Source of the DNA: Streptomyces formicae
Lineage (GTDB): Bacteria; Actinomycetota; Actinomycetes; Streptomycetales; Streptomycetaceae
Assembly (NCBI RefSeq): GCF_022647665.1
Contig: NZ_CP071872.1
Coordinates: 6,076,001 to 6,140,000 of the forward strand
DNA: 64,000 nucleotides
Direction of reading: 5' to 3'
In this document: in pieces, positions 31,294 through 53,811 of the stretch
How positions within the stretch are numbered: the stretch's first letter is position 1
Layout: each line of letters opens with the position of its first letter
Notes under the pieces: generated by a model
What the model was told of the DNA's origin: nothing
What the model saw: the letters and a program-made list of their open reading frames with translations, nothing else
The model's database searches: none
Program-made: the position numbers and the translations under genes

Positions 31294-32106
31294 ATGCAGC
31301 CGGTGGGACGACGCGCGCGGACCTTCTCGCGCCGTGAGTGGGGGCCGCTGTTCACGGCCGTACGGGCGGCGCTCACGGCACGGACGTGGCGGGCGGTACC
31401 CGTGACGCTCGCCGCCGTCTGCCTGACCGCGCTGTTCCAGCTCGTCCAGAACCGGTCGTGGGGCTACGGGCCGGTGCAGGCCATCGGCTCGGTCCGCGCC
31501 GAGGACCCGCTCTGGCTCGCCCTCCTGCGCACGCCGCTCTCCCTCTTCGTACCGGCGCTCGACCTGCCGGTGTGGGGCGCCCTCGCCCAGATCCTGATCG
31601 TGTTCGGGATCGCCGAGATCTGTCTGGGGCGGGCGCGGATGCTGCTGGTCGCGTACGTGGCGACGCTGGCCGGGACGACGTACGCGCGGATCGGGATCGC
31701 GCTCGGCCCGGAGGGCCCGCTGGGGCTCCCGGCGGCGGACGCACACGTCGTGGACACCGGCCCGTCGGCGGCGGTCGTCGGCCTCGCGGTCGTCGTCTGC
31801 TGCCGCTACCGGGCGTGGCTGACGATGGGCCTGGTGATCGTCGCGATGGTCGTCGAAGTGATGGTCAAGTCCAATCTCGCGGGCAAGGAGCATCTGGCGG
31901 CCATCGCCGCGGTGCTCCTCGCCTGCGCGGCCGCGGCGGCGTACCGGACGGCGGCGTCTCAGTGGTGGTCGGACTCGCCCGCGGGCAGCCTGCTCGGGGC
32001 GCCGCCGATCAGGTCCTCGAACCTGCGGCGCGGCCCGCTCCAGCGCTTGTCGTGGCGGAAGGCCCGCAGCAACGCCCGGGCGCGGGAGCGGGGGCGGGTG
32101 CGGTAG
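31294..32106 (+). CDS. rhomboid-like integral membrane protein
   Basis: A 270-residue polytopic protein with about six helices (VPVTLAAVCLTALFQL, LPVWGALAQILIVFGIAEI, MLLVAYVATLAGTTY, AAVVGLAVVVCC, WLTMGLVIVAMVVEVMV, HLAAIAAVLLACAAAAAY). DTGPSAAVVGL resembles the rhomboid Ser loop and KEHLAAIAAVLL the His helix, so a rhomboid-type fold is plausible; protease activity is unproven. The start is uncertain: the ATG at 31294 follows a gggggg tract, but a GTG about 50 bases upstream is possible. Its last 49 codons run antisense to the end of the next gene. Confidence 0.65.
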   Translation: MQPVGRRARTFSRREWGPLFTAVRAALTARTWRAVPVTLAAVCLTALFQLVQNRSWGYGPVQAIGSVRAEDPLWLALLRTPLSLFVPALDLPVWGALAQILIVFGIAEICLGRARMLLVAYVATLAGTTYARIGIALGPEGPLGLPAADAHVVDTGPSAAVVGLAVVVCCRYRAWLTMGLVIVAMVVEVMVKSNLAGKEHLAAIAAVLLACAAAAAYRTAASQWWSDSPAGSLLGAPPIRSSNLRRGPLQRLSWRKARSNARARERGRVR

Positions 32107-32726
32107 ACGCGCTTCGCCCAGGGCGAGGCGGGCCGGGCCAGCCGCAGGGCGCCGATGAGCGCCACGAACGGGACGAGCATGCCGATGAGCGCCATGCGCA
32201 GCTTGCCCTTGAAGAGCGTGATCAGGACGAAGCCGAAGTTGACGGCGAGGAAGAGCAGGAAGACCCGGCGGTCGTCCCGCTCGTCCTCGGTCAGGTCGTT
32301 GACGCCGAGCGGCGCGAAGCCGCCGAGGGTCAGCAGCAGCAGGGCCGTGGTGAGCACGACGACCTCGACGCTCTGGCGGCCGGCCTCGGTCCAGTAGACG
32401 TCGTCGAGATGGAGGATGAGCGCGAACTCGTCGAGGACGAGTCCCGCGCCCGCGCCGAAGATCACGGCGAAGGTGATGGTGCCGGGTCCGGCGCGCTCGG
32501 CCGAGGCGATCGACCCGAAGCCGCCGATGATGATGAGGACGACTCCGGGCACCACGTGGTGGATGTGCGTGCCGCCGGTACTGACGTTCCGGAAGGGTCC
32601 CCTGCCGGCCCGGATCAGCCGGGTGATCGTCCGGGTGACGAGGAAGGTCAGGACGAACGAGGCCAGCGCGACGAGCAGCGGGAGCTTCCCGGGCTCCTCG
32701 ATGTTGCGGTAGAACCAGCCACCCAT
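31959..32726 (-). CDS. integral membrane protein, unknown function
   Basis: A 255-residue polytopic protein. Helices include KLPLLVALASFVLTFLVT, GVVLIIIGGFGSIAS, TFAVIFGAGAGLVLDEFALI, VVVLTTALLLLTLGGFA and RVFLLFLAVNFGFVLITLF. Conserved-looking polar pieces are STGGTHIHHVVPG and LDEFALILHLDDVYW, which put His and Asp near the membrane and could bind metal. The C-terminus is basic and overlaps the end of the convergent gene by 148 bp. I cannot name its family with confidence. Confidence 0.7.
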   Translation of the reverse strand: MGGWFYRNIEEPGKLPLLVALASFVLTFLVTRTITRLIRAGRGPFRNVSTGGTHIHHVVPGVVLIIIGGFGSIASAERAGPGTITFAVIFGAGAGLVLDEFALILHLDDVYWTEAGRQSVEVVVLTTALLLLTLGGFAPLGVNDLTEDERDDRRVFLLFLAVNFGFVLITLFKGKLRMALIGMLVPFVALIGALRLARPASPWAKRVYRTRPRSRARALLRAFRHDKRWSGPRRRFEDLIGGAPSRLPAGESDHH

Positions 32727-32782
32727 GCCACACGCTCCCCGGTTTGTCCGCTATGCGCAATTTACCGTCGGGGCGCACCGAC

Positions 32783-32788
32783 TACCCT
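32783..32788 (+). promoter_or_regulatory. -10 element for a leaderless cobS message
   Basis: TACCCT ends 7 bases before the GTG at 32796, the same arrangement and hexamer as at the DUF3043 gene. Confidence 0.45.
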
Positions 32789-32795
32789 GCGCGCA

Positions 32796-33590
32796 GTGAG
32801 CTCCCTCAAGACGCCCGGTCCGATGACCGGCATACGGTTCGCCTTCGGCACCCTCACCGTGCTGCCGGTACGGGTCACCCGCTGGGACCGCGACGCGGCG
32901 CGCGCCGGCATGCTGTGCGCGCCCCTCGCCGGTCTCGTCGTCGGCTTCTGCGCGGCGGCCGCCGGCGGACCGCTGCTCCTCCTGGGCGCGGGGCCGCTGC
33001 TCGCCGCGCTGGCCTCCGCCGCCGTACCGGCCGTGCTCACCCGGGGGCTCCATCTCGACGGACTCGCCGACACGGCGGACGGGCTGGGCAGCGGCAGGCC
33101 CGCCGAGGACGCACTGCGGATCATGAAGCAGTCGGACATCGGTCCGTTCGGCGTGATCACCCTGGTCTTCGTCCTGCTCACCCAGGTCGCCGCGGGATAC
33201 GAGCTGTACGGGAGCGGCGGCTGGGCCCGGGGCGCCGTCGCCGTGGCGCTCGCGGCCATCGTCGCCCGCCTCGCCCTCACCCTCGCCTCCCGCACCGGCG
33301 TCCCCGCGGCCCGCCCCGACGGCCTGGGCGCGGCGGTGGCCTCCACCGTGTCCCCGGCCGCCGCGGCGACCGCCACGCTCCTGACCCTGGCGGCGTGCGC
33401 CGGCGCGGGGGCACTCTTCGGGCCGTACGCGGCGGCACGGCACGCGCTCGCCGCCGCGGTCGCGCTCGTGGCCGCCCACCTGCTCCTGCGCCACTGCGTG
33501 CGGCGCTTCGGCGGGGTGACGGGCGACGTGTTCGGCGCGGTGGCGGAGACCGCGGCGACGACGGCGCTCGTCGCGCTCACGCTGGGCTGA
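32796..33590 (+). CDS. cobS: adenosylcobinamide-GDP ribazoletransferase (cobalamin synthase)
   Basis: A 264-residue membrane enzyme that joins adenosylcobinamide-GDP and alpha-ribazole (phosphate), the last major step of cobalamin assembly. Family signatures are FAFGTLTVLPV, the metal-binding HLDGLADTADGLGSGRP, RIMKQSDIGPFGV and the C-terminal FGGVTGDVFGAVAE. It completes the cobU-cobT-cobS set that supplies and consumes its two substrates. The GTG start without a ribosome site suggests a leaderless transcript. It is divergent from the membrane-protein gene. Confidence 0.95.
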   Translation: MSSLKTPGPMTGIRFAFGTLTVLPVRVTRWDRDAARAGMLCAPLAGLVVGFCAAAAGGPLLLLGAGPLLAALASAAVPAVLTRGLHLDGLADTADGLGSGRPAEDALRIMKQSDIGPFGVITLVFVLLTQVAAGYELYGSGGWARGAVAVALAAIVARLALTLASRTGVPAARPDGLGAAVASTVSPAAAATATLLTLAACAGAGALFGPYAAARHALAAAVALVAAHLLLRHCVRRFGGVTGDVFGAVAETAATTALVALTLG

Positions 33591-33651: not shown

Positions 33652-34518
33652 CTACCGCACCGGCGTCCCGCCGGACACCGGAGCCGGAGCCGGCGCGGGC
33701 GCGTAGCCCTGCCCGCCCTGCCCGCCCTGCCCGCCCTGACAGCTCTCGCGCCAGACCCCCAGCTCGTACTTCTTCAGCATCGAACTCAGCCCCAGCCGCC
33801 GCGACTCGGGGCAGAAGCGGTCCACCGGGAGTTCGTACTCGACATGGAAGACGGCCTTCCCCGCCGCGACGAACGGTGTCAGCCGCTCGCATTCGCCGTA
33901 CTGGGCGCACTGTTCGTTGACCGCGAAGTCGAACTCCCCCACCAGCTCCGGGATCTGGTCCAGGTCGTTCTTCAGGCCCACCGCCATGCCCCGGTCATGG
34001 ACCAGCCGGGCGATCAGCCGGTTGTAGCGGAGCTGGTCGGCGGCGGTGAGGGGGAAGCCGGTGTCGTTGGCGTAGCCGTCCATGTTGTCCGGCTCGACCG
34101 CGTCGAAGCCCTTGTCCCCGCACATGTCGATCCGCTCGGCCATCAGCGGCTCCAGGACGTCCGTACGGCGGATGTCGAGCCAGCGTTCGCCCTCCCAGCC
34201 GTTGCCCTTGCCGAGCACGGCCTCGGGAAAGGCGTCCGCGTCGGGGCGGAAGTCCTCCCAGGCGCCGGTGGAGAGGTAGCAGATGACCTTGCGACCGCGC
34301 CGGTGCAGGTCGGTGACCGTGCCCTCCGGGTGCTCGAAGCCGTCGATGTCGTACACCGGTACGTCGACGCCGGGGTCGAGGCGGCCGCTCAACTGCCACT
34401 GCCAGTCCAGCCCCGGCGCCGGCCGCCAGCGGGGGCGCGGCGGGGCCGGATCGTCCGGGGCGGCGGTGCAGCCCGCGAGCAGCAGCAGTGGCAGGACCAG
34501 CAACAGCAACAGCCTCAT
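33652..34518 (-). CDS. GH114-family lipoprotein (endo-alpha-1,4-polygalactosaminidase-like)
   Basis: A 288-residue secreted lipoprotein (lipobox LLLLAGC). The GH114 TIM-barrel blocks are all visible: DWQWQLSG, VPVYDIDGFEHPEGTV, RKVICYLSTGAWEDFRPDA, GWEGERWLDIRR, KGFDAVEPDNMDGYAND with the catalytic acidic residues, MAVGLKNDLDQIPEL and FDFAVNEQCAQY. Known members cut alpha-1,4-linked galactosaminoglycans such as fungal galactosaminogalactan and Pel. The ATG at 34518 is chosen for a GAGGAG site. The C-terminus has a GGQ repeat from a 9-bp tandem. It is the last gene of the Pel-like operon, 13 bp after the membrane gene. Confidence 0.88.
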   Translation of the reverse strand: MRLLLLLVLPLLLLAGCTAAPDDPAPPRPRWRPAPGLDWQWQLSGRLDPGVDVPVYDIDGFEHPEGTVTDLHRRGRKVICYLSTGAWEDFRPDADAFPEAVLGKGNGWEGERWLDIRRTDVLEPLMAERIDMCGDKGFDAVEPDNMDGYANDTGFPLTAADQLRYNRLIARLVHDRGMAVGLKNDLDQIPELVGEFDFAVNEQCAQYGECERLTPFVAAGKAVFHVEYELPVDRFCPESRRLGLSSMLKKYELGVWRESCQGGQGGQGGQGYAPAPAPAPVSGGTPVR

Positions 34519-34531
34519 CTGCGGGGACTCC

Positions 34532-36169
34532 TCAGCGGTGGGAGGTGATGCGGCCCAGCAGAACACAGACCAGCGCGGCGAGTACGGCGGCCGCCGCGCC
34601 GGGCACGACGAGCGGCGCGGCGCCCGGGAGGAGTACGGCGGCGAGGCCGGCCGCGCAGCAGACGGCGGCCGCGGCGTGGACGGCGCCGAACGCCTGGAGC
34701 AGCAGCCCGCTCCACAGCACGACCCCGAGCAGCAGCGCCTCGGCGAGCGCGGCGCCGCCGGGCCGGAGACCGCCGTCGCCGTCGCCGTCCGGCCATACGA
34801 GCAGGACGGCCCCGACGAACGTCAGCAGGGTGCCCAACTGCCAGGCGAGACAGCGCGCCAGGGCCGCCGCGACCGCCGCGCGGAAGCCGCGGGTCGTGGT
34901 GCTGGCCCGCATCCCGGCGAGGCTGTCCGCGCGGAAGCGGTGCAGGAGGTACTCGGCGGGTCCCATGGCGAAGGTCAGCGCGACGGCGAACGGCGGGGTG
35001 TCCAGGGCGACATGCAGCACGAGCACGCCCGTCCCGAGCCCGCACAGCCCGTACGGCACGGAGGCGCCGACCGACGGCGCGGCGGCCCGTGCACGGGGGT
35101 GCGTCCGGCCTTCGGCCGTGCGGGTGGGGAGTACGCGCGCGGGTCTCCCCGTGGGGGGCTGATCACTGCCGGCGACCGCGGACCGGTGGCCGGAACTCCC
35201 CGTCCACAGGCCGGCAGAAAGCCCGGCCGTGCGCCTCCGCACAGGGGCCGGAAGCCGTGCACCGAGCGCTCGGGCGACCACGGCGGGAAGACACCACGAG
35301 GGCGCCGGAGACGGGCCGTGCAGGGTCGCCCCCGCAGGGGATCGGCGGAAGTACCGGGTGACTGAACGGTGGCGGTGCCCCGCCGGTCCCCGAGGAGGTG
35401 AGCCCGGAGGGGCCCCGGGGCCCGCACCGGGAGTTCCGGCCCGCCCCCACAGACCCCGCAACCCGGCGCGCCACCCGCCCCAGGGCACCGCACCAGTAGT
35501 CCCGGCCCGCCCCCGCAGACCCCGCAGACCCCGCAACCCCGCTCGTCCCACCCGCAGCCACGTGGGCCACCCGCGGCCGTGCGTCAGGACCAGCAGCGCG
35601 GTCGCCGCCGCGAGGTAGAGCGACTGGCCCGCGGCGAAGAGGAGGACCGGGGCGTCACCGGCGGCGACGAACAGCGCCGGGGTCGTGCACAGCAGGACGC
35701 CCGCCGGTGCGCCCGCCCTCAGCGTGCGCGCCGCCGCGGCGCGGTCGCCGAGGCCGAGCCAGGTGTAGGCGCGGTGGGCCAGGGCCTGGTTCCAGGCCCA
35801 GCCGGCCAGGGCCGAGGCGAGCAGGGGCGCGTACGCCGTCGGCGCGCCGAGGACGTAACCGAGCCCGGGCAGCGCGAAGACCAGGCCGCGCAGCAGACAG
35901 GAGAGGAGCGTGGGCCCGGCCCGTCCGGAGGCCGGCCCCGCCCCCACCGGGCCGCCGCGCCCGCCGCGCCCGCCGCGCCCGACGGGCTCCGCACGACGCG
36001 CGTACAGCTCCTCCGCCAGCGCGAACGAGTCCTCCCGCCCGTAGCGGACACGTATCTGCTCGTCCGTCAGCCCGTCGGCCTCCAGCAGCGCGGCTATCTC
36101 GTCCGGGTGCACCGCATCCGCGATGGCGTCGTCCAGCCGCTCCGCCAGCTCGTCCACCGCGCTCACCAC
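34532..36169 (-). CDS. multi-pass membrane protein of the Pel-like operon
   Basis: A 545-residue protein. The N-terminus (1-62) is a soluble helical segment (ADAVHPDEIAALLEADGLTD). Hydrophobic helices occupy about 85-190 (LRGLVFALPGLGYVLGAP, APLLASALAGWAW) and about 375-545 (FAVALTFAMGPAEYLLHRF, WQLGTLLTFVGAVLLVW). The middle, about 200-370, is Arg/Pro/Gly-rich, has no hydrophobic pattern and resembles translated intergenic repeats. It overlaps the glycosyltransferase gene (a GTGGTGA junction). Context suggests export or a synthase partner, but I see no real similarity to PelG, PelE or PelD. Confidence 0.65.
   Translation of the reverse strand: MVSAVDELAERLDDAIADAVHPDEIAALLEADGLTDEQIRVRYGREDSFALAEELYARRAEPVGRGGRGGRGGPVGAGPASGRAGPTLLSCLLRGLVFALPGLGYVLGAPTAYAPLLASALAGWAWNQALAHRAYTWLGLGDRAAAARTLRAGAPAGVLLCTTPALFVAAGDAPVLLFAAGQSLYLAAATALLVLTHGRGWPTWLRVGRAGLRGLRGLRGRAGTTGAVPWGGWRAGLRGLWGRAGTPGAGPGAPPGSPPRGPAGHRHRSVTRYFRRSPAGATLHGPSPAPSWCLPAVVARALGARLPAPVRRRTAGLSAGLWTGSSGHRSAVAGSDQPPTGRPARVLPTRTAEGRTHPRARAAAPSVGASVPYGLCGLGTGVLVLHVALDTPPFAVALTFAMGPAEYLLHRFRADSLAGMRASTTTRGFRAAVAAALARCLAWQLGTLLTFVGAVLLVWPDGDGDGGLRPGGAALAEALLLGVVLWSGLLLQAFGAVHAAAAVCCAAGLAAVLLPGAAPLVVPGAAAAVLAALVCVLLGRITSHR
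35438..35541. repeat. direct repeats within the atypical middle of the membrane-protein gene
   Basis: Blocks of the form ccggcccgccccc(g/a)cagaccccgc occur near 35437-35459 and 35502-35535, with extra cagaccccg copies in the second. They encode the GLRGLRGLRGRAG and GLRGLWGRAG peptides. Confidence 0.65.
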
Positions 36170-37743
36170 ACGCTCCCGTCCGCCGCGAGCTCCCGGTACC
36201 AGGGATCCCGCAGCTCCACCGTCCAGTCGTCGACCGTCCAGCCGGCCTCGGCGGCCCCGGCGGTCTCAACCGACGCCGACTCGTACCCCGCGGGCCCGCC
36301 GGCCGGGGGCCCGCCGACCGCGGCCCCGGCCAGCTCCCGGTAGATCGCGCGGAAGGCGTCCACCGAACGCCTCAGCGTGAAGCGGTCGATGACCCGCTGC
36401 CTGGCGCGCCGGCCGAGATCGGCGCGGCGCTCGTCGTCCCGGAGCAGCGCGACGGCCGCGGCCGCCAGCGCCTCCGGCTCGCGCGGCGGCACGACGAGCC
36501 CCGTGTCGCCCACGGCCTCCCGGACCCCGCCCACGTCCGTCGAGACGGTGGTCCGGCCGCAGGACATCGCCTCGATGACCGAGAAGGGGAACCCTTCGCT
36601 GATGCTGGAGAGCATCACCACGTGCCCGGCGGCGTAGGCACGCGCGACATCGCTGATCCGCCCCTCCCAGTGGATCCCGTCCGCGACCCCGAGTTCGGCG
36701 GCGAGCTTCTCCAGCCGGGTCCGGTACCACTCCCCGCCCTCCGGCGCCGCCCCGAACAACCGCAGCCGCAGCTCGGGCAGTTCGGCCCGGGCCAGGGCGT
36801 ACGCCCGGATCAGCGTCTCCAGGTCCTTGATCGGGTCGATCCGTCCCGCCCAGCTCAGCGTGGGGACGGAGGGTTCTGCTCCGGCGTGCGGGAAGGCCCG
36901 GGGGTCGACGCCGTTGTAGACCGTGCGGATACGGTCCGCGTCGGCGCCTCCCCGCTCCTCCCAGCGCCGGTTGTACTGGTTGCACGGGGTGATCAGATCG
37001 GCCCGCCGGTACCCCAGGGTGTTGAGCTCCCGGTAGAAGCCGAGCATCAGCGTCTTGACCGCCCGGGACCCGCCCGCGCCGCGGTAGCCGAGATAGCGCT
37101 CGCGCAGGTAGATGCCGTGCTCGGTGAGGAGAAAGGGCACACCGTCCAGGCGTTTCGCGGCGATCGCGGGGAGCGTGGCGAGGCCGCTGCTGACGGCGTG
37201 GGCGACGCTGTCCGCGGGCACGGGGACGGCGAGTGCGCGCAGCGCGTGTTCGAGGAGGTCGGTGGCGGTCAGGGCGTCGTGGGCGGTGGGGCGCGCCGCG
37301 GCGACCGGCAGATGCGGCATGGTCCATGTCCACATCAGGGTGCGGACGGCGTCCTCGGTGCGCAGGGCGGCCGAGAGCCGGCCCGCCCGGGCCTCCACCG
37401 CGAGCGCGTCGATGCCGGCGCCGAAGTCGCAGTGCGCGTCCGGGTCGAGGACGGAGAGCAGGAACCGCTCGTACGTGTCGAGGAAGCGGCGGCGGGCCGT
37501 CCTGCCGAGCGCCGCGCGCTGGCGGCCGGGGCGCGGCCCCCACAGCGGCACGGCGGCGTGGCCCCGCACGTTGGGCGGCAGCTCCCAGACGACGGGCTCG
37601 CGGCCGCTGCCGGTGAGGGCGGTCAGGGTGAAACCGACCTCGGGCATGCCGCGGACGAGCTGGTCGCACCAGGTGCTGACGCCGCCGTGGGCGTGTGGAT
37701 AGGTGCCTTCGGTGAGCATGGTGACGTGACGTCCCTGGCTCAT
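36163..37743 (-). CDS. pelF: PelF-type glycosyltransferase (GT4, DUF3492 N-terminus)
   Basis: A 526-residue cytosolic glycosyltransferase. The N-terminal block VTMLTEGTYPHAHGGVSTWCDQLV is diagnostic for the PelF/DUF3492 group, and the middle LLTEHGIYLRER and FYRELNTLGYRRADLITPCNQYN follow its pattern. The GT4 C-terminal domain shows LSWAGRIDPIKDLETLI and the nucleotide-sugar motif SSISEGFPFSVIEAMSCGR. PelF of Pseudomonas uses a UDP-sugar to build the GalN/GalNAc polymer Pel. About 45 extra residues follow the GT domain. It lies 68 bp after the deacetylase gene and overlaps the next. Confidence 0.88.
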   Translation of the reverse strand: MSQGRHVTMLTEGTYPHAHGGVSTWCDQLVRGMPEVGFTLTALTGSGREPVVWELPPNVRGHAAVPLWGPRPGRQRAALGRTARRRFLDTYERFLLSVLDPDAHCDFGAGIDALAVEARAGRLSAALRTEDAVRTLMWTWTMPHLPVAAARPTAHDALTATDLLEHALRALAVPVPADSVAHAVSSGLATLPAIAAKRLDGVPFLLTEHGIYLRERYLGYRGAGGSRAVKTLMLGFYRELNTLGYRRADLITPCNQYNRRWEERGGADADRIRTVYNGVDPRAFPHAGAEPSVPTLSWAGRIDPIKDLETLIRAYALARAELPELRLRLFGAAPEGGEWYRTRLEKLAAELGVADGIHWEGRISDVARAYAAGHVVMLSSISEGFPFSVIEAMSCGRTTVSTDVGGVREAVGDTGLVVPPREPEALAAAAVALLRDDERRADLGRRARQRVIDRFTLRRSVDAFRAIYRELAGAAVGGPPAGGPAGYESASVETAGAAEAGWTVDDWTVELRDPWYRELAADGSVW

Positions 37744-37811
37744 CGTGCTGGGTCCCCCTGGAATGGCGGAAGGCGCGGACGGGGCGCGGTGGAGGTGACC
37801 GGGGGACGCGG

Positions 37812-40016
37812 TCAGACGGCCGGCAGCCGCAGCGTCACCGCGGACTGGAGGAGCTCAGGACCGGTCCACGCCGAGCGCTGCCCCGCGTACGCGCTGCCGA
37901 AGACGGCCGTACCGAGCAGGAGTTGCTTACGGGTGCCCTCGGGGGCGGTGACGGGCACGGAGAGCCCGGACGGCCCCTGGACGGTGACCGTGGTGCCGAT
38001 GCAGTACGCCGTGACCTTGCCGGCGTCGAGCGCCTTCTGCCAGGCGGCGCGGCGGCTCAGCTCCGCACCGACGTCGCGCTGGCGCGGGTTGACGAGCGGG
38101 GCGCTGTCCGCGAAGAGGGACCGGTAGTCGCCGAGGATCCGGTCGAGCACCGGGTAGAGGATGCGCTCCTCCGCCAGGTTCGACTGGTGGACGTAGTGCG
38201 GGCGCGGATCGTTGGCGATCACATGGCCGAGGGCGGTCCGGGCCTCCTGCGGCACGATGTGCTGCGCGTAGCCGGTCGCCGGGTCCAGCGGCTCGTCCAG
38301 GCAGGTGGAGGCCGGGTTGGCGGCGCAGATGCCGCTGCCGCCGTCGGCGAGGTCCGTGTAGATCCAGTTGTACTCGTCGGCCATCTCGGCGGCCGTGCCC
38401 ACGTTGTAGTACACGTTCATCGGGTGGCGGGGCACGGTGAGCGCGCCGCCCACCGTGCGCTGCTGCGGCTCGCGGGAGTTGTCGGACGCGACCCACTTGA
38501 CGCCGTTGTCGGCGAGCGCAGGGGCCAGGTTCGGGTTGTCCGCCGGCTGCTGCGGCAGGGTCTTCAGCCCTGAGTGCTCTCCGGTGACCAGCTCGCTCCG
38601 GTCCACCGGAAGACCCTTGTTCGCGGCCCAGTTGTGGTTGTCGCGGATCTGCGCGGAGATCTCGGCCCGGCTCATCCACCGGGTGTTGCCGGCCGCGTCC
38701 TTCGCGCACTGCCAGGGCACGACGGAGACGTCCTGGACGCAGCCGAGGAACGGGTGCGTGTAGGTGTGGTTGATCCACCGATAGCGGGCCCGGTCGGCGA
38801 GCAGTTGCGCGGTGAGCGCGTCGGTGCCGCCGTGCGCGGCCTTCCACTCCTCGCCGGCGCCCGCGTTGTGGACCATGTCGAGGGTGAAGCCGCGGGCCTG
38901 CTGCCACTGGGCGGCGTACTGCGCGTCCGCGGCGGTCATCCGGATGTCCGGGGTGGTCTGCCCGCCCCCGGGGCCCGCGCAGTCGATGTCGCCGGGGGTG
39001 CAGTTGCGCTCGGTGTCCCAGCGCGCGTCGGGCGCGAAGACGTCGTCGACGTGGACCGAGAAGTAGTTGCGGCTCTGGCCGAGGTGGACGCCCTGGGTGA
39101 GCCATTCGACGATGCCGCGCGCCAGCAGCCGGAACTGCCGCTGGTGCTGGTTGTACGCGAAGGTCACCACGAGCTCGCGCCGCCCGTCGTGCGCGTACTC
39201 GCCGAGCAGGCTGGCCCGGCCCGCGCCGCCGGGCACGGGGGCGTCGACGTAGCTGGTGAAGCCCTCGCGGGGGCGGGCCAGGTAGCCGTAGCTCTCGCCG
39301 ACGTCCGGCGCGTTGTCCTCGAAGGTGAGCGGCCCGTCGAGATAGCCGAAGGGCCCGGAGCGGCCCGCGGCGGTCACGGCGGCCGCGGCGCCGTCGAGGG
39401 TGCCCGACCAGCCGCCTTCGCTGGTGTGGTCGAGCCCGACGCCCGGATGCGCCCACGTGTAGGCGTCGACCTGGCGGATGCCGAAGGTCTTCTCGTAGGC
39501 GACGAGGGCCGCCTGCTCGGCGGCGCCCGCGGGGTCCGTCCCGAACGGCGCCTCGTTCGGCAGCACGACGCCCTGGAACTTGGCGCGCGGCCGGCCCCCG
39601 GCAGTGTCGCTCAGGTACGCCGCGCCGATCCGCGGCCGGTCCGGGTCGGACAGGTCGAGGACGCTGTACGGGACTCCGGTGCTGCGCAGCTCGGCGGTGA
39701 CCGCGGCCACCGACGCGCCGCCGTCGTCGACGACGAGGACCTCCAGGTCGATCCGCGGCGCCGGGCCGGCGGCCGCTGCGGCCGGCGCGGGCAGGGCGGC
39801 GGCGGCGAGGAGCGCGGACACGGCGAGCGCGACCGCGGCTCTGCCGCCGGGCCGGCCGGCCCTGTGCCCGCGCGCTCCCCCGGCGCCCGGCCCGTTCGCG
39901 CCCCGCTCCCGCGCGCCTTCACGCCTCACGCCGCGCCCCTGCCCGAGACTGCCCCCACCGGTGCCCGAACCCGCAGCCGTACCCGTACCCGTACCTGTGC
40001 CGAATCCGTACGCCAT
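37812..40016 (-). CDS. secreted polysaccharide deacetylase-like protein (PelA deacetylase-type)
   Basis: A 734-residue exported protein: a Gly/Thr- then Arg-rich N-terminus, a signal-type helix (VALAVSALLAAAALPAPAAAAA), then a large extracellular region. A Rossmann-like section starts DLEVLVVDDGG. The catalytic section has NodB-like metal motifs: FSVHVDDVF with D324/D325 and NHTYTHPFLGC with H417 and H421. Together with PelF and a GH114 gene this matches the deacetylase half of PelA, which de-N-acetylates the polymer outside the membrane. I chose the ATG at 40016 (GGGGAG 7 bases upstream); the open frame to 40136 lacks a ribosome site. First gene of the operon. Confidence 0.8.
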   Translation of the reverse strand: MAYGFGTGTGTGTAAGSGTGGGSLGQGRGVRREGARERGANGPGAGGARGHRAGRPGGRAAVALAVSALLAAAALPAPAAAAAGPAPRIDLEVLVVDDGGASVAAVTAELRSTGVPYSVLDLSDPDRPRIGAAYLSDTAGGRPRAKFQGVVLPNEAPFGTDPAGAAEQAALVAYEKTFGIRQVDAYTWAHPGVGLDHTSEGGWSGTLDGAAAAVTAAGRSGPFGYLDGPLTFEDNAPDVGESYGYLARPREGFTSYVDAPVPGGAGRASLLGEYAHDGRRELVVTFAYNQHQRQFRLLARGIVEWLTQGVHLGQSRNYFSVHVDDVFAPDARWDTERNCTPGDIDCAGPGGGQTTPDIRMTAADAQYAAQWQQARGFTLDMVHNAGAGEEWKAAHGGTDALTAQLLADRARYRWINHTYTHPFLGCVQDVSVVPWQCAKDAAGNTRWMSRAEISAQIRDNHNWAANKGLPVDRSELVTGEHSGLKTLPQQPADNPNLAPALADNGVKWVASDNSREPQQRTVGGALTVPRHPMNVYYNVGTAAEMADEYNWIYTDLADGGSGICAANPASTCLDEPLDPATGYAQHIVPQEARTALGHVIANDPRPHYVHQSNLAEERILYPVLDRILGDYRSLFADSAPLVNPRQRDVGAELSRRAAWQKALDAGKVTAYCIGTTVTVQGPSGLSVPVTAPEGTRKQLLLGTAVFGSAYAGQRSAWTGPELLQSAVTLRLPAV

Positions 40017-40321: not shown

Positions 40322-41911
40322 GTGACTGCTCTCACTCTCAGCACGGCCGGCGCCGCGACGCTGCGCGCCGACGCGATCGTCGTCGGCGTCGCGAAGGGCG
40401 CTGCGTCCAAGTCCGGGGGACTGGTCGTCGCCGCCGGCGCCGAGGCCGTGGACAAGGCGTTCGACGGAAAGCTCGCCACCGTCCTGGAGACCCTCGGCGC
40501 CTCCGGTGCCGAGGGCGAGGTGACCAAGCTGCCCGCGCCGTCAGGCCTGAAGGCCCCGGTCGTGGTGGCGGTCGGGCTCGGTGCCGCGCCGGAGAAGGAC
40601 GAGGCGTACCGGGCGGAGTCGCTGCGGCGCGCCGCCGGTGCCGCCGCGCGGGCGCTGGCCGGCACGAAGAAGGCCGCGTTCGCGCTGCCGATCGAGGCGT
40701 CCGAGGACGCCGAGGCGATCGCCGAGGGCGCGCTGCTCGGCGCCTACGCCTTCACCGCCTACCAGGACGGCAACGGCGGCCTCGGCGGGAACGCCAAGGA
40801 CGCCAAGGACGGCAAGGCCGCCAAGGGCGCGAACGGCGGCAACGGCAAGAAGCAGCCGCTGGCCGAGGTCGCCCTGGTCGGCGCCAAGCCGCGCGACAAG
40901 GCGTACAAGGCCGCGGCCGAGCGGGCGATCGCGCTCACCGAGGAGATCAACCGCGCCCGCGACCTGGTCAACACCCCGCCGAACGACCTCTACCCCGAGT
41001 CGTTCGCCGCCGTCGCCACCGCCGCCGGCAAGGAGCACGGCATCAAGGTGCAGGTGTTCGACGAGAAGGCCCTCGTCAAGGGCGGCTACGGCGGCATCCT
41101 CGGCGTCGGCCAGGGTGCGGCCAACGGCCCGCGCCTGGTCCGGCTCGGCTACACGCACCCCAAGGCGCAGAAGACCCTCGCCCTCGTCGGCAAGGGCATC
41201 ACCTACGACTCGGGCGGCATCTCGCTGAAGCCGGCCGGCCACAACGAGACGATGAAGTGCGACATGAGCGGCGCCGCCGCGGTGTTCGCCACCGTCGTCA
41301 CGGCCGCCCGGCTCGGCCTGGAGGTGAACGTCACCGGCTGGCTGGCGCTCGCCGAGAACATGCCGTCCGGCACCGCCACCCGCCCCGGTGACGTCCTGCG
41401 CATGTACAGCGGCACGACGGTCGAGGTGCTCAACACCGACGCCGAGGGCCGGCTCGTGCTCGCCGACGCGATCACCAAGGCGTCGGAGGAGAACCCGGAC
41501 GCGATCGTGGACGTGGCGACCCTGACCGGCGCGATGGTGCTGGCGCTGGGCCACCGCAGGTTCGGGATCATGGCCAACGACGACGCGTTCCGCACCTCGA
41601 TCCACGAGATCGCGGAGGAGGTCGGCGAGGACTCCTGGCCGATGCCGCTCCCGTCGGACCTGCGCAAGGGCATGGACTCGCCGACCGCCGACATCGCCAA
41701 CATGGGCGAGCGGATGGGCGGCGGTCTGGTCGCCGGGCTGTTCCTGAAGGAGTTCGTGGGCGAGGACATCACCTGGGCCCACCTGGACATCGCGGGACCG
41801 GCCTTCAACGAGGGCGGCCCGTTCGGCTACACGCCGAAGGGCGGCACCGGCTCCGCGGTCCGCACGCTGGTGAAGCTCGCCGAGCGCACGGCCGCCGGCG
41901 ACCTGGGCTGA
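40322..41911 (+). CDS. pepA: leucyl aminopeptidase (M17)
   Basis: A 529-residue cytosolic metallo-exopeptidase that removes N-terminal residues from peptides. The M17 catalytic domain is clear: VGKGITYDSGGISLKPAG (metal-binding Lys/Asp), MKCDMSGAAAV, the NTDAEGRLVLADA signature and the C-terminal WAHLDIAGPAF. The N-terminal domain is typical except for a Gly/Lys-rich insert (about residues 156-178) between the domains, rich in near-repeats of AKDAKDGKAAKG. GTG start. A strong terminator follows. Confidence 0.95.
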   Translation: MTALTLSTAGAATLRADAIVVGVAKGAASKSGGLVVAAGAEAVDKAFDGKLATVLETLGASGAEGEVTKLPAPSGLKAPVVVAVGLGAAPEKDEAYRAESLRRAAGAAARALAGTKKAAFALPIEASEDAEAIAEGALLGAYAFTAYQDGNGGLGGNAKDAKDGKAAKGANGGNGKKQPLAEVALVGAKPRDKAYKAAAERAIALTEEINRARDLVNTPPNDLYPESFAAVATAAGKEHGIKVQVFDEKALVKGGYGGILGVGQGAANGPRLVRLGYTHPKAQKTLALVGKGITYDSGGISLKPAGHNETMKCDMSGAAAVFATVVTAARLGLEVNVTGWLALAENMPSGTATRPGDVLRMYSGTTVEVLNTDAEGRLVLADAITKASEENPDAIVDVATLTGAMVLALGHRRFGIMANDDAFRTSIHEIAEEVGEDSWPMPLPSDLRKGMDSPTADIANMGERMGGGLVAGLFLKEFVGEDITWAHLDIAGPAFNEGGPFGYTPKGGTGSAVRTLVKLAERTAAGDLG

Positions 41912-53594: not shown

Positions 53595-53811
53595 TGGGGT
53601 GCGCCGGTGGGTGGTCCGGTTCGGGGCCCCTCCGGGCTCGACTCCTCGGAGGCGGCGGCGTACAGGTTGTGCCGGGTTGGGAACCCGGCGCCGGCCGCCG
53701 CCTCCTGCGGGGCAGGCCCTGCACGGCCCCGCCCCGGGGTAGTCCCCCGGGTGCGGGTGGGTGGGTGGTTGTCGTGCCCGCGGGTCGTTGCTCGCCTGCG
53801 GGCCGGTGGGT

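What the first reader, a model, noticed from the sequence alone, without database searches (positions are those of the whole stretch)
33652..40016. Compact Pel-like exopolysaccharide operon with PelA split into separate proteins
Four minus-strand genes in one run encode a secreted NodB-like deacetylase (HVDD and HTYTH motifs), a PelF/DUF3492 glycosyltransferase, a multi-pass membrane protein and a GH114 lipoprotein. In Pseudomonas, PelA joins hydrolase and deacetylase in one chain and PelF makes the GalN/GalNAc polymer; Gram-positive pel loci are known in Bacilli. Here the two PelA activities are separate genes, and no recognisable PelD, PelE, PelG or GGDEF gene is present. The inference is a minimal, differently wired cationic galactosaminoglycan system, possibly for aerial hyphae or adhesion.
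Basis: partly seen in the sequence, partly recalled or inferred. Interest (0 to 1): 0.78.

Follow-up and report, generated by a model that had tools for sequence, protein, structure and literature searches.

The report
Streptomyces fungal-type galactosaminoglycan operon
Four neighbouring Streptomyces genes look like a compact factory for a sticky, positively charged sugar polymer of the kind moulds use for adhesion, a class of bacterial operon already outlined in print; in this strain the gene for the likely export channel has been altered by a repeat element.

Summary
The four minus-strand genes are real and their order is conserved: 56 of 80 fetched Streptomyces loci carry all four. The deacetylase is not NodB/PelA-like: its predicted fold matches all three domains of the Aspergillus enzyme Agd3, founder of CE18, and it has the catalytic motifs. 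The hydrolase is GH114, about 46% identical to Aspergillus Ega3; PelA's hydrolase is GH166. So this is an Agd3+Ega3 pair, as in the fungal galactosaminogalactan cluster, joined to a divergent PelF-like glycosyltransferase. Bamford et al. 2020 (PMC7229062) already described bacterial Agd3 operons of this composition, and Bacillus cereus already separates the two PelA activities. New here: the unannotated membrane protein, modelled on an ortholog, matches the MATE/Wzx/MurJ (MOP) fold without detectable PelG sequence similarity; PelG has no match in the genome. Two further DUF3492 loci in the genome have related membrane proteins. In the window's copy, an insert holding dispersed repeats replaces transmembrane helices 5-6, so export by this copy may be impaired. 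No function was tested.

The parts
37812..40016 (-). Probably secreted Agd3-like (CE18-type) polysaccharide deacetylase: N-terminal CBM87-like domain, CE domain, C-terminal beta domain; start codon uncertain (39929 or 40016)
   Evidence: GC3 0.79 in the first 125 codons of the longest ORF against 0.97 after
39042..39047 (-). CM1 codons Asp-Asp (HVDD)
   Evidence: D238, D239 of A1; invariant in 29 of 29; motif in 80 of 80
38754..38768 (-). CM2 metal-binding HTYTH
   Evidence: H331, H335 of A1, invariant in 29 of 29; motif in 80 of 80
38427..38429 (-). Candidate CM3 arginine (VPRHPMN)
   Evidence: R444 of A1; motif in 80 of 80; Cys in distant L105
38187..38189 (-). Candidate CM4 catalytic acid His (HYVHQSN)
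   Evidence: H524 of A1; motif in 80 of 80; invariant in the 6 of 6 sequences of A5, four of them distant
36163..37743 (-). Cytoplasmic GT4 glycosyltransferase, DUF3492/PelF-like, probable polymerase
34532..36169 (-). Multi-pass membrane protein; helical N-domain, then in orthologs a MOP-fold (MATE/Wzx/MurJ) core of 12 predicted membrane helices; probable polymer exporter
35072..35572 (-). Segment of the membrane-protein gene, mostly without nucleotide match to the two nearest orthologs, GC3 0.77 against 0.94, covering the place of TM5-TM6
35305..35417 (-). Dispersed genomic repeat inside that segment
35071..35189 (-). Second stretch of that segment, similar to a different repeat-bearing place of the same genome (L130)
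33652..34518 (-). GH114 lipoprotein (lipobox LLAGC by eye), Ega3-like endo-alpha-1,4-galactosaminidase
34087..34089 (-). GH114 nucleophile Asp (EPDNMDGY), equivalent to Ega3 Asp189
   Evidence: alignment, residue numbers from PMC12054363, matched by the equal spacing of 58 residues
33913..33915 (-). GH114 acid/base Glu (VNEQC), equivalent to Ega3 Glu247
   Evidence: alignment, residue numbers from PMC12054363, matched by the equal spacing of 58 residues

Best explanation
A compact galactosaminoglycan operon. The PelF-like GT4 enzyme polymerises UDP-GalNAc (possibly with another UDP-hexose) in the cytoplasm. The membrane protein, a MOP-fold relative of Wzx, MurJ and MATE proteins, passes the chain through the membrane and perhaps docks the GT through its N-domain. 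The secreted Agd3-like enzyme removes acetyl groups, making the polymer cationic and adhesive. The GH114 lipoprotein trims or releases deacetylated stretches. Shown by computation: gene content and order, predicted folds, catalytic residues, conservation. Inferred: substrate, direction of transport, cooperation, and a role in hyphal adhesion. In this strain the exporter gene has lost TM5-TM6 to a repeat-bearing insert, so this copy may export poorly or not at all; a second, fuller cluster in the same genome could cover for it.
For: CE model: 6nwz (Agd3) is first in Foldseek (E 3.4e-20) and VIA (Z 22.6, rmsd 4.3, 532 aligned, model 3-648 on chain 145-805); CM1-CM4 candidates in 80 of 80 orthologs. 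GH114: phmmer E 6.9e-58 to Ega3, 95 of 208 aligned residues identical, both catalytic residues kept, also in 56 of 56 orthologs (which shows Asp in the one row its pattern missed). GT: PelF equivalog 161 bits, cut-off 100. Membrane protein of ortholog L038: the 50 listed VIA rows are, by title, MATE, MOP, WzxE or MurJ proteins, one titled only 'protein A'; best Z 19.5, rmsd 4.5, 322 aligned. Four genes in order in 56 of 80 loci. Linkage in 61 genomes of the genus: 25 of 35 GH114 match rows at 270 bits or more lie within 12 kb of a CE match, against 2 of 44 lower-scoring rows (three CE fragments left out, see full report).
Against: No biochemistry. Window CE scores below the Pfam gathering cut-off (20.5 against 27.6 bits) and its family profile finds no PDB sequence at E 1 or better. 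The GT is far from canonical PelF (161 against 491 bits), so linkage and donor may differ. The window operon has no epimerase gene. Eight of 80 loci lack GH114 and 5 of 80 have CE alone, and 12 of 39 CE matches in the 61 genomes have no GH114 within 12 kb on the same contig, so the module is separable. The MOP fold was modelled on an ortholog cut at my chosen start, not on the window copy; Foldseek alone gave no match at E 0.001 or better; and two of the 12 model helices (TM2, TM8) are only weakly hydrophobic across the family (medians 0.39 and 0.35).
Confidence: 0.68

Rival explanations
1. A true but minimal Pel operon: PelF, a cryptic PelG and a split PelA.
For: GT passes the NCBIfam PelF cut-off. 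The ortholog of the membrane protein has the MOP fold; that PelG also belongs to the MOP superfamily is recalled, not tested. L107 is a canonical actinobacterial PelF-PelG locus with an Agd3-type CE.
Against: Profile comparison of the membrane protein with PelG: probability 0.1 (only two PelG sequences). No PelG match in the genome. GH114 instead of GH166. GT far from canonical PelF.
Confidence: 0.15
2. A wall-glycan decoration pathway: the GT adds sugars to a lipid carrier, the MOP protein flips it, and deacetylase and hydrolase remodel a wall-bound galactosamine glycan rather than a free exopolysaccharide.
For: WzxE and MurJ, among the listed fold matches, are lipid-linked-sugar flippases by title. 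Galactosamine-containing wall polysaccharides are cited for Streptomyces in PMC7229062 (passage).
Against: No priming glycosyltransferase, polymerase or ligase match in the four proteins; Agd3 and Ega3 act on a secreted polymer (PMC7229062 passages).
Confidence: 0.1
3. The window copy is decaying: after insertion of the repeat the exporter no longer works, and CE and GH114 act on polymer from the paralogous cluster or from other organisms, including fungi. This can be true together with the best explanation.
For: TM5-TM6 replaced in the window copy only, of 66 sequences; GC3 0.77 in the insert; CE alone persists in 5 of 80 loci with all motifs; a second full cluster exists.
Against: The reading frame stays open through about 500 bases of insert, and the other three genes keep coding signatures.
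Confidence: 0.3

Closest known systems
Bacterial agd3-type operons (Bamford et al. 2020, PMC7229062; section 13 read in full, other passages)
   Same: Agd3-like deacetylase with cytoplasmic GT, multi-spanning membrane protein and GH114; Actinobacteria included
   Different: I could not see whether Streptomyces is one of their five drawn examples (figure and supplements not held). The text I read does not assign a fold to the membrane protein.
Fungal galactosaminogalactan cluster (Agd3, Ega3, Sph3, epimerase, GAG synthase)
   Same: Agd3 fold and motifs; GH114 about 46% identical to Ega3
   Different: Separate PelF-like GT and MOP-fold protein; no epimerase or GH135 match in the four window proteins. 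The fungal synthase was not compared.
Gram-positive Pel operon pelDEADAFG (B. cereus; PMC7112168 and PMC13254593, passages)
   Same: PelF-type GT; separate deacetylase and hydrolase; three-domain deacetylase plan
   Different: PelADA is founder of CE26/CBM114, not CE18; PelG has no match here; no GGDEF match in the four proteins
MOP superfamily exporters (MATE, WzxE, MurJ)
   Same: Fold of the orthologous membrane protein (VIA Z 19.5)
   Different: No Pfam match; extra helical N-domain; the N-domain region is shared with two other DUF3492 loci of the genome

Membership tests
CE18 / Agd3 deacetylases | Three-domain architecture (CBM87-like, CE, C-terminal beta domain) | tested here: met
   VIA 6nwz Z 22.6, model 3-648 on chain 145-805
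CE18 / Agd3 deacetylases | Catalytic motifs CM1 (DD), CM2 (HxxxH), CM3 (Arg), CM4 (His) | tested here: met
   80 of 80 orthologs by motif; CM3 and CM4 assigned by spacing and alignment, not by residue-level superposition; Agd3's Met666 is not kept (Tyr522)
CE18 / Agd3 deacetylases | Sequence above the Pfam PF25115 gathering score | tested here: not met
   20.5 bits against 27.6; so Agd3-like, formal CE18 membership left open
CE18 / Agd3 deacetylases | Metal-dependent deacetylation of alpha-1,4-GalNAc polymer | not testable with these tools
   needs enzyme assay
GH114 | PF03537 above cut-off | tested here: met
   289.6 bits against 27
GH114 | Asp nucleophile and Glu acid/base | tested here: met
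   alignment to 6oj1; Glu motif in 56 of 56 orthologs, Asp motif in 55 of 56 by pattern, and the one miss (L077) reads PDNMDGF, so it has the Asp too
Pel system | PelF glycosyltransferase | tested here: met
   NF038011 161 bits, cut-off 100; canonical L107 491 bits
Pel system | PelG (PF16933) | tested here: not met
   no match in the whole genome; hhalign with membrane protein probability 0.1
Pel system | PelD with c-di-GMP-binding GGDEF | tested here: inconclusive
   no GGDEF match in the four proteins; the genome was not searched
Pel system | PelA-type hydrolase GH166 | tested here: not met
   the hydrolase is GH114; GH166 for PelA from PMC12054363
MOP superfamily | MOP fold with 12 TM helices, in orthologs | tested here: met
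   ortholog L038 model, pLDDT 85.7, 12 long helices by my count; VIA Z 19.5; Foldseek best E 1.1e-3; TM2 and TM8 weakly hydrophobic
MOP superfamily | 12 TM helices in the window copy itself | tested here: not met
   TM5 and TM6 replaced by weakly or non-hydrophobic sequence; the window copy was not modelled
Fungal GAG cluster | Agd3 + Ega3 + GAG synthase + Sph3 (GH135) + UDP-hexose epimerase | tested here: inconclusive
   first two have counterparts; synthase not compared; no GH135 or epimerase match among the four window proteins; an SDR gene, best NCBIfam score LegB just below its cut-off, is in the paralogous cluster L004

The most novel reading that the evidence does not exclude
A two-component, c-di-GMP-independent galactosaminoglycan synthase: a PelF-like GT paired with a previously unassigned MOP-fold family carrying a cytosolic docking domain does the work of PelD, E, F and G, evolved as a module in three versions in one Streptomyces genome, and links bacterial Pel to the fungal GAG cluster.
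Probability: 0.3. Interest if true: 0.62.

Novelty: new member of a known kind. Interest (0 to 1): 0.42.

Why it matters
If right, many streptomycetes make a fungal-type cationic adhesive besides the known MatAB polymer, which bears on pelleting, surface attachment and on where fungi got their GAG cluster. It would also show that Pel-type polymers can be exported without PelG, and perhaps without PelD and PelE, using a different MOP-fold protein, which is directly testable by gene deletion.

Tried and rejected
NodB/CE4 deacetylase: rejected; no Polysacc_deac_1 match at E 1 or better, and in the VIA list Agd3 (Z 22.6) ranks above the CE4 structures shown (up to 11.1; 50 of 1000 aligned chains are shown). 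Membrane protein as PelG by sequence: no support. A frameshift as the cause of the odd middle of the membrane protein: I read all three frames by eye and saw no missing helices; an insert was found instead. Promoter and terminator scan: nothing (sigma-70 pattern only). Rfam: one match, far below its gathering score, taken as chance. PDB sequence searches with the CE: nothing relevant. S. coelicolor locus tags SCO2174-SCO2178, recalled as possible orthologs, gave one paper that mentions SCO2176 only as a predicted membrane protein; orthology was not checked. Literature: nine searches listed no paper that is evidently a study of this operon in Streptomyces; subscription papers are mostly not held, so this is weak evidence. 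PMC12054363 (passage) cloned a putative GH114 gene from Streptomyces platensis; I did not see its outcome. Horizontal transfer to or from fungi was not tested, because no fungal genomes are on hand. The loci L006-L085 are the best 80 of 250 relatives found with a CE query, so gene-loss counts hold for that sample only. The membrane-protein scores of L004 and L005 are inflated, since both were rows of the profile; one search repeats the search without them.
Full report
What is there. Four genes run on the minus strand between cobS (31338-33590, plus) and the M17 aminopeptidase gene pepA (40322-41911, plus): deacetylase (CE), glycosyltransferase (GT), membrane protein, GH114 lipoprotein. The GT and membrane-protein genes overlap by 7 bases; the likely GH114 start (34518) lies 13 bases after the membrane-protein stop. 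Third-position GC is high, as expected of Streptomyces genes, in the GT, the GH114 gene and the CE after codon 125 (0.94-0.97). The CE start is uncertain, since its first 375 bases lack this signature. The signal peptide and the lipobox were judged by eye. That the window is from Streptomyces is inferred from its nearest loci.

Conservation. A scan of the GTDB genome contigs with the CE found 250 relatives, of which the best 80 were fetched; the 80 titles are all Streptomyces. In those 80 loci the four genes are present in order in 56; 8 have CE-GT-membrane protein without a GH114 match; 5 have CE followed by cobS without the other three; 11 are cut by contig ends; pepA is upstream in 80 of 80. 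Median identity of the best segment to the window is 73% for CE (80 loci), 75% for GT (74), 75% for GH114 (56) but 46.5% for the membrane protein (68). In an even sample of 61 genomes of the window's genus, the own one included, the CE profile matches 33 and GH114 matches 55. GH114 match rows fall in two score classes. Of 35 rows at 270 bits or more, 25 lie within 12 kb of a CE match; of 44 lower-scoring rows, 2 do, both short partial matches. Seen from the CE side, 27 of 39 CE matches have a GH114 row within 12 kb and 12 do not, some of them on short contigs. Before this count I left out three of the 42 CE rows: a second piece of the G047 gene and fragments in G016 and G001; the G001 fragment does lie within 12 kb of a lower-class GH114 row. 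At genome level the association gives a Fisher p of 9e-5 (24/6/9/22); this ignores relatedness, and the 270-bit line was drawn after seeing the scores. In 296 genomes drawn from the phylum the CE profile matches 9, four of them of the window's genus.

The deacetylase is Agd3-like. Pfam gives only sub-threshold Agd3_CE and CBM87 matches for the window protein, though 28 of 29 aligned members show Agd3_CE at E 0.1 or better, and the distant relatives L105, L106 and L107 pass the cut-off. A model from 29 sequences (mean pLDDT 74.7) finds Agd3 (6nwz) first, with human heparan sulfate N-deacetylase next; VIA gives Z 22.6 over 532 residues, spanning all three Agd3 domains. The motif residues named in PMC7229062 (passages) have counterparts: DD, HxxxH, an RxP[MV]N arginine and an HQSN histidine, in 80 of 80. 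The arginine and the last histidine are assigned by spacing and alignment only, and the conserved Met666 of Agd3 is Tyr here.

The hydrolase is Ega3-like. It matches Aspergillus Ega3 (6oj1) at E 6.9e-58, 95 of 208 aligned residues identical, and keeps both catalytic residues (numbers from PMC12054363), as do 56 of 56 orthologs. The PelA hydrolase belongs to another family, GH166 (PMC12054363 passage).

The glycosyltransferase passes the PelF cut-off but is distant. It scores 161 bits, its two genome paralogs 164 and 104, and the PelF of a canonical actinobacterial locus 491. That canonical locus, L107, has a GAF/GGDEF protein, PelF, PelG and an Agd3-type CE within one stretch, which ties Agd3-type enzymes to Pel loci as well. 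L110, from the same genus as L107, carries a similar GT and CE and a PelG 87% identical to that of L107.

The membrane protein. Neither Pfam nor NCBIfam names it; PHROGs and PADLOC were not tried. Its orthologs carry a conserved N-domain and, in the model of ortholog L038 (mean pLDDT 85.7), 12 long helices. The model matches MATE structures at VIA Z up to 19.5, with WzxE (15.1) and MurJ (13.5) also listed; by their titles the 50 listed rows are MATE, MOP, WzxE or MurJ proteins, one being titled only 'protein A'. Foldseek itself gave its best match at E 1.1e-3, also MATE. The tool warns that helical models can reach about Z 14 without clear relatives; 19.5 over 322 residues stands above that. 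Two helices, TM2 and TM8, are weakly hydrophobic across the family, so the count of 12 rests on the model. Profile comparison with PelG shows nothing, and PelG has no match in the genome. I therefore read it as a PelG analogue of the same superfamily; PelG's own place in that superfamily is recalled, not tested.

Paralogs. DUF3492 has three matches in this genome. Locus L004 has CE, GT, membrane protein, an SDR enzyme, a nucleotidyltransferase, another gene and GH114; L005 has GT, a related membrane protein and an SDR enzyme. With a membrane-protein profile from which both were left out, L004 scores 343.6 and L005 55.3 bits, L105 94.8 and L108 45.1, and none of 374 shuffled ORFs matches. GH114 matches in this genome are two, in the window and in L004. 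Outside the genus, L105 has CE-GT-membrane protein followed by sugar-nucleotide genes, and L108 has two GTs, membrane protein, a broken CE and GH114.

The window copy is altered. Between about bases 600 and 1060 of the membrane-protein gene there is no nucleotide match to the two loci nearest by CE identity, L006 and L007; third-position GC is 0.77 in bases 598-1098 against 0.94 on either side; and the place of TM5 and TM6 is no longer strongly hydrophobic (-0.08 and 0.48 against medians of 1.12 and 1.46), which among 66 aligned sequences is seen in the window alone. Inside lies a stretch of about 113 bases (35305-35417) repeated elsewhere in this genome and in genome G006: 17 of the 18 places fetched match it, while the eighteenth, L130, matches another part of the insert (35071-35189), so more than one repeat may be involved. 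A 25-base core pattern taken from these copies, with up to two mismatches, has 11 matches in the genome, the window copy included, against 0 for the reversed control. The frame remains open. Whether this protein still exports is unknown.

What is known. PMC7229062 (section 13 read in full) reports Agd3 homologs in 45 bacterial species; of 35 in its tree, 30 have agd3 in or near operons with carbohydrate-active enzymes, and the operons identified all have a cytoplasmic GT and a multi-spanning membrane protein, with GH114 'highly consistent'. It also cites galactosamine polymers and an endogalactosaminidase from Streptomyces. B. cereus PelADA has a similar three-domain plan but founded CE26 (PMC13254593 passages). 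The role in hyphal adhesion is inference, by analogy with fungal GAG and with the Streptomyces MatAB polymer (PMC5972031, search listing only).

Noticed in passing
window 35305-35417 and 53705-53729: A dispersed repeat of about 113-165 bases, 11 matches to its 25-base core in the own genome (the one at 53705 with two mismatches) and many related copies in genome G006, some in inverted pairs; one copy lies inside a coding frame.
   Followed up: partly
L005 8370-12523: A third DUF3492 glycosyltransferase with a related membrane protein and an SDR enzyme, a few kb from an oligopeptide-type ABC permease gene.
   Followed up: partly
L108 8443-10179 (minus): In a distant actinobacterium the CE gene of a similar cluster is broken into several frames, next to a GH114 gene with a full-length match and two DUF3492-type GTs.
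   Followed up: no
L021, L040, L062, L068, L078: The CE gene, with all catalytic motifs, sits between pepA and cobS while GT, membrane protein and GH114 are not found there.
   Followed up: partly
L107 1993-9270: A canonical actinobacterial pel locus (GAF/GGDEF, PelF, PelG) that carries an Agd3-type deacetylase.
   Followed up: partly
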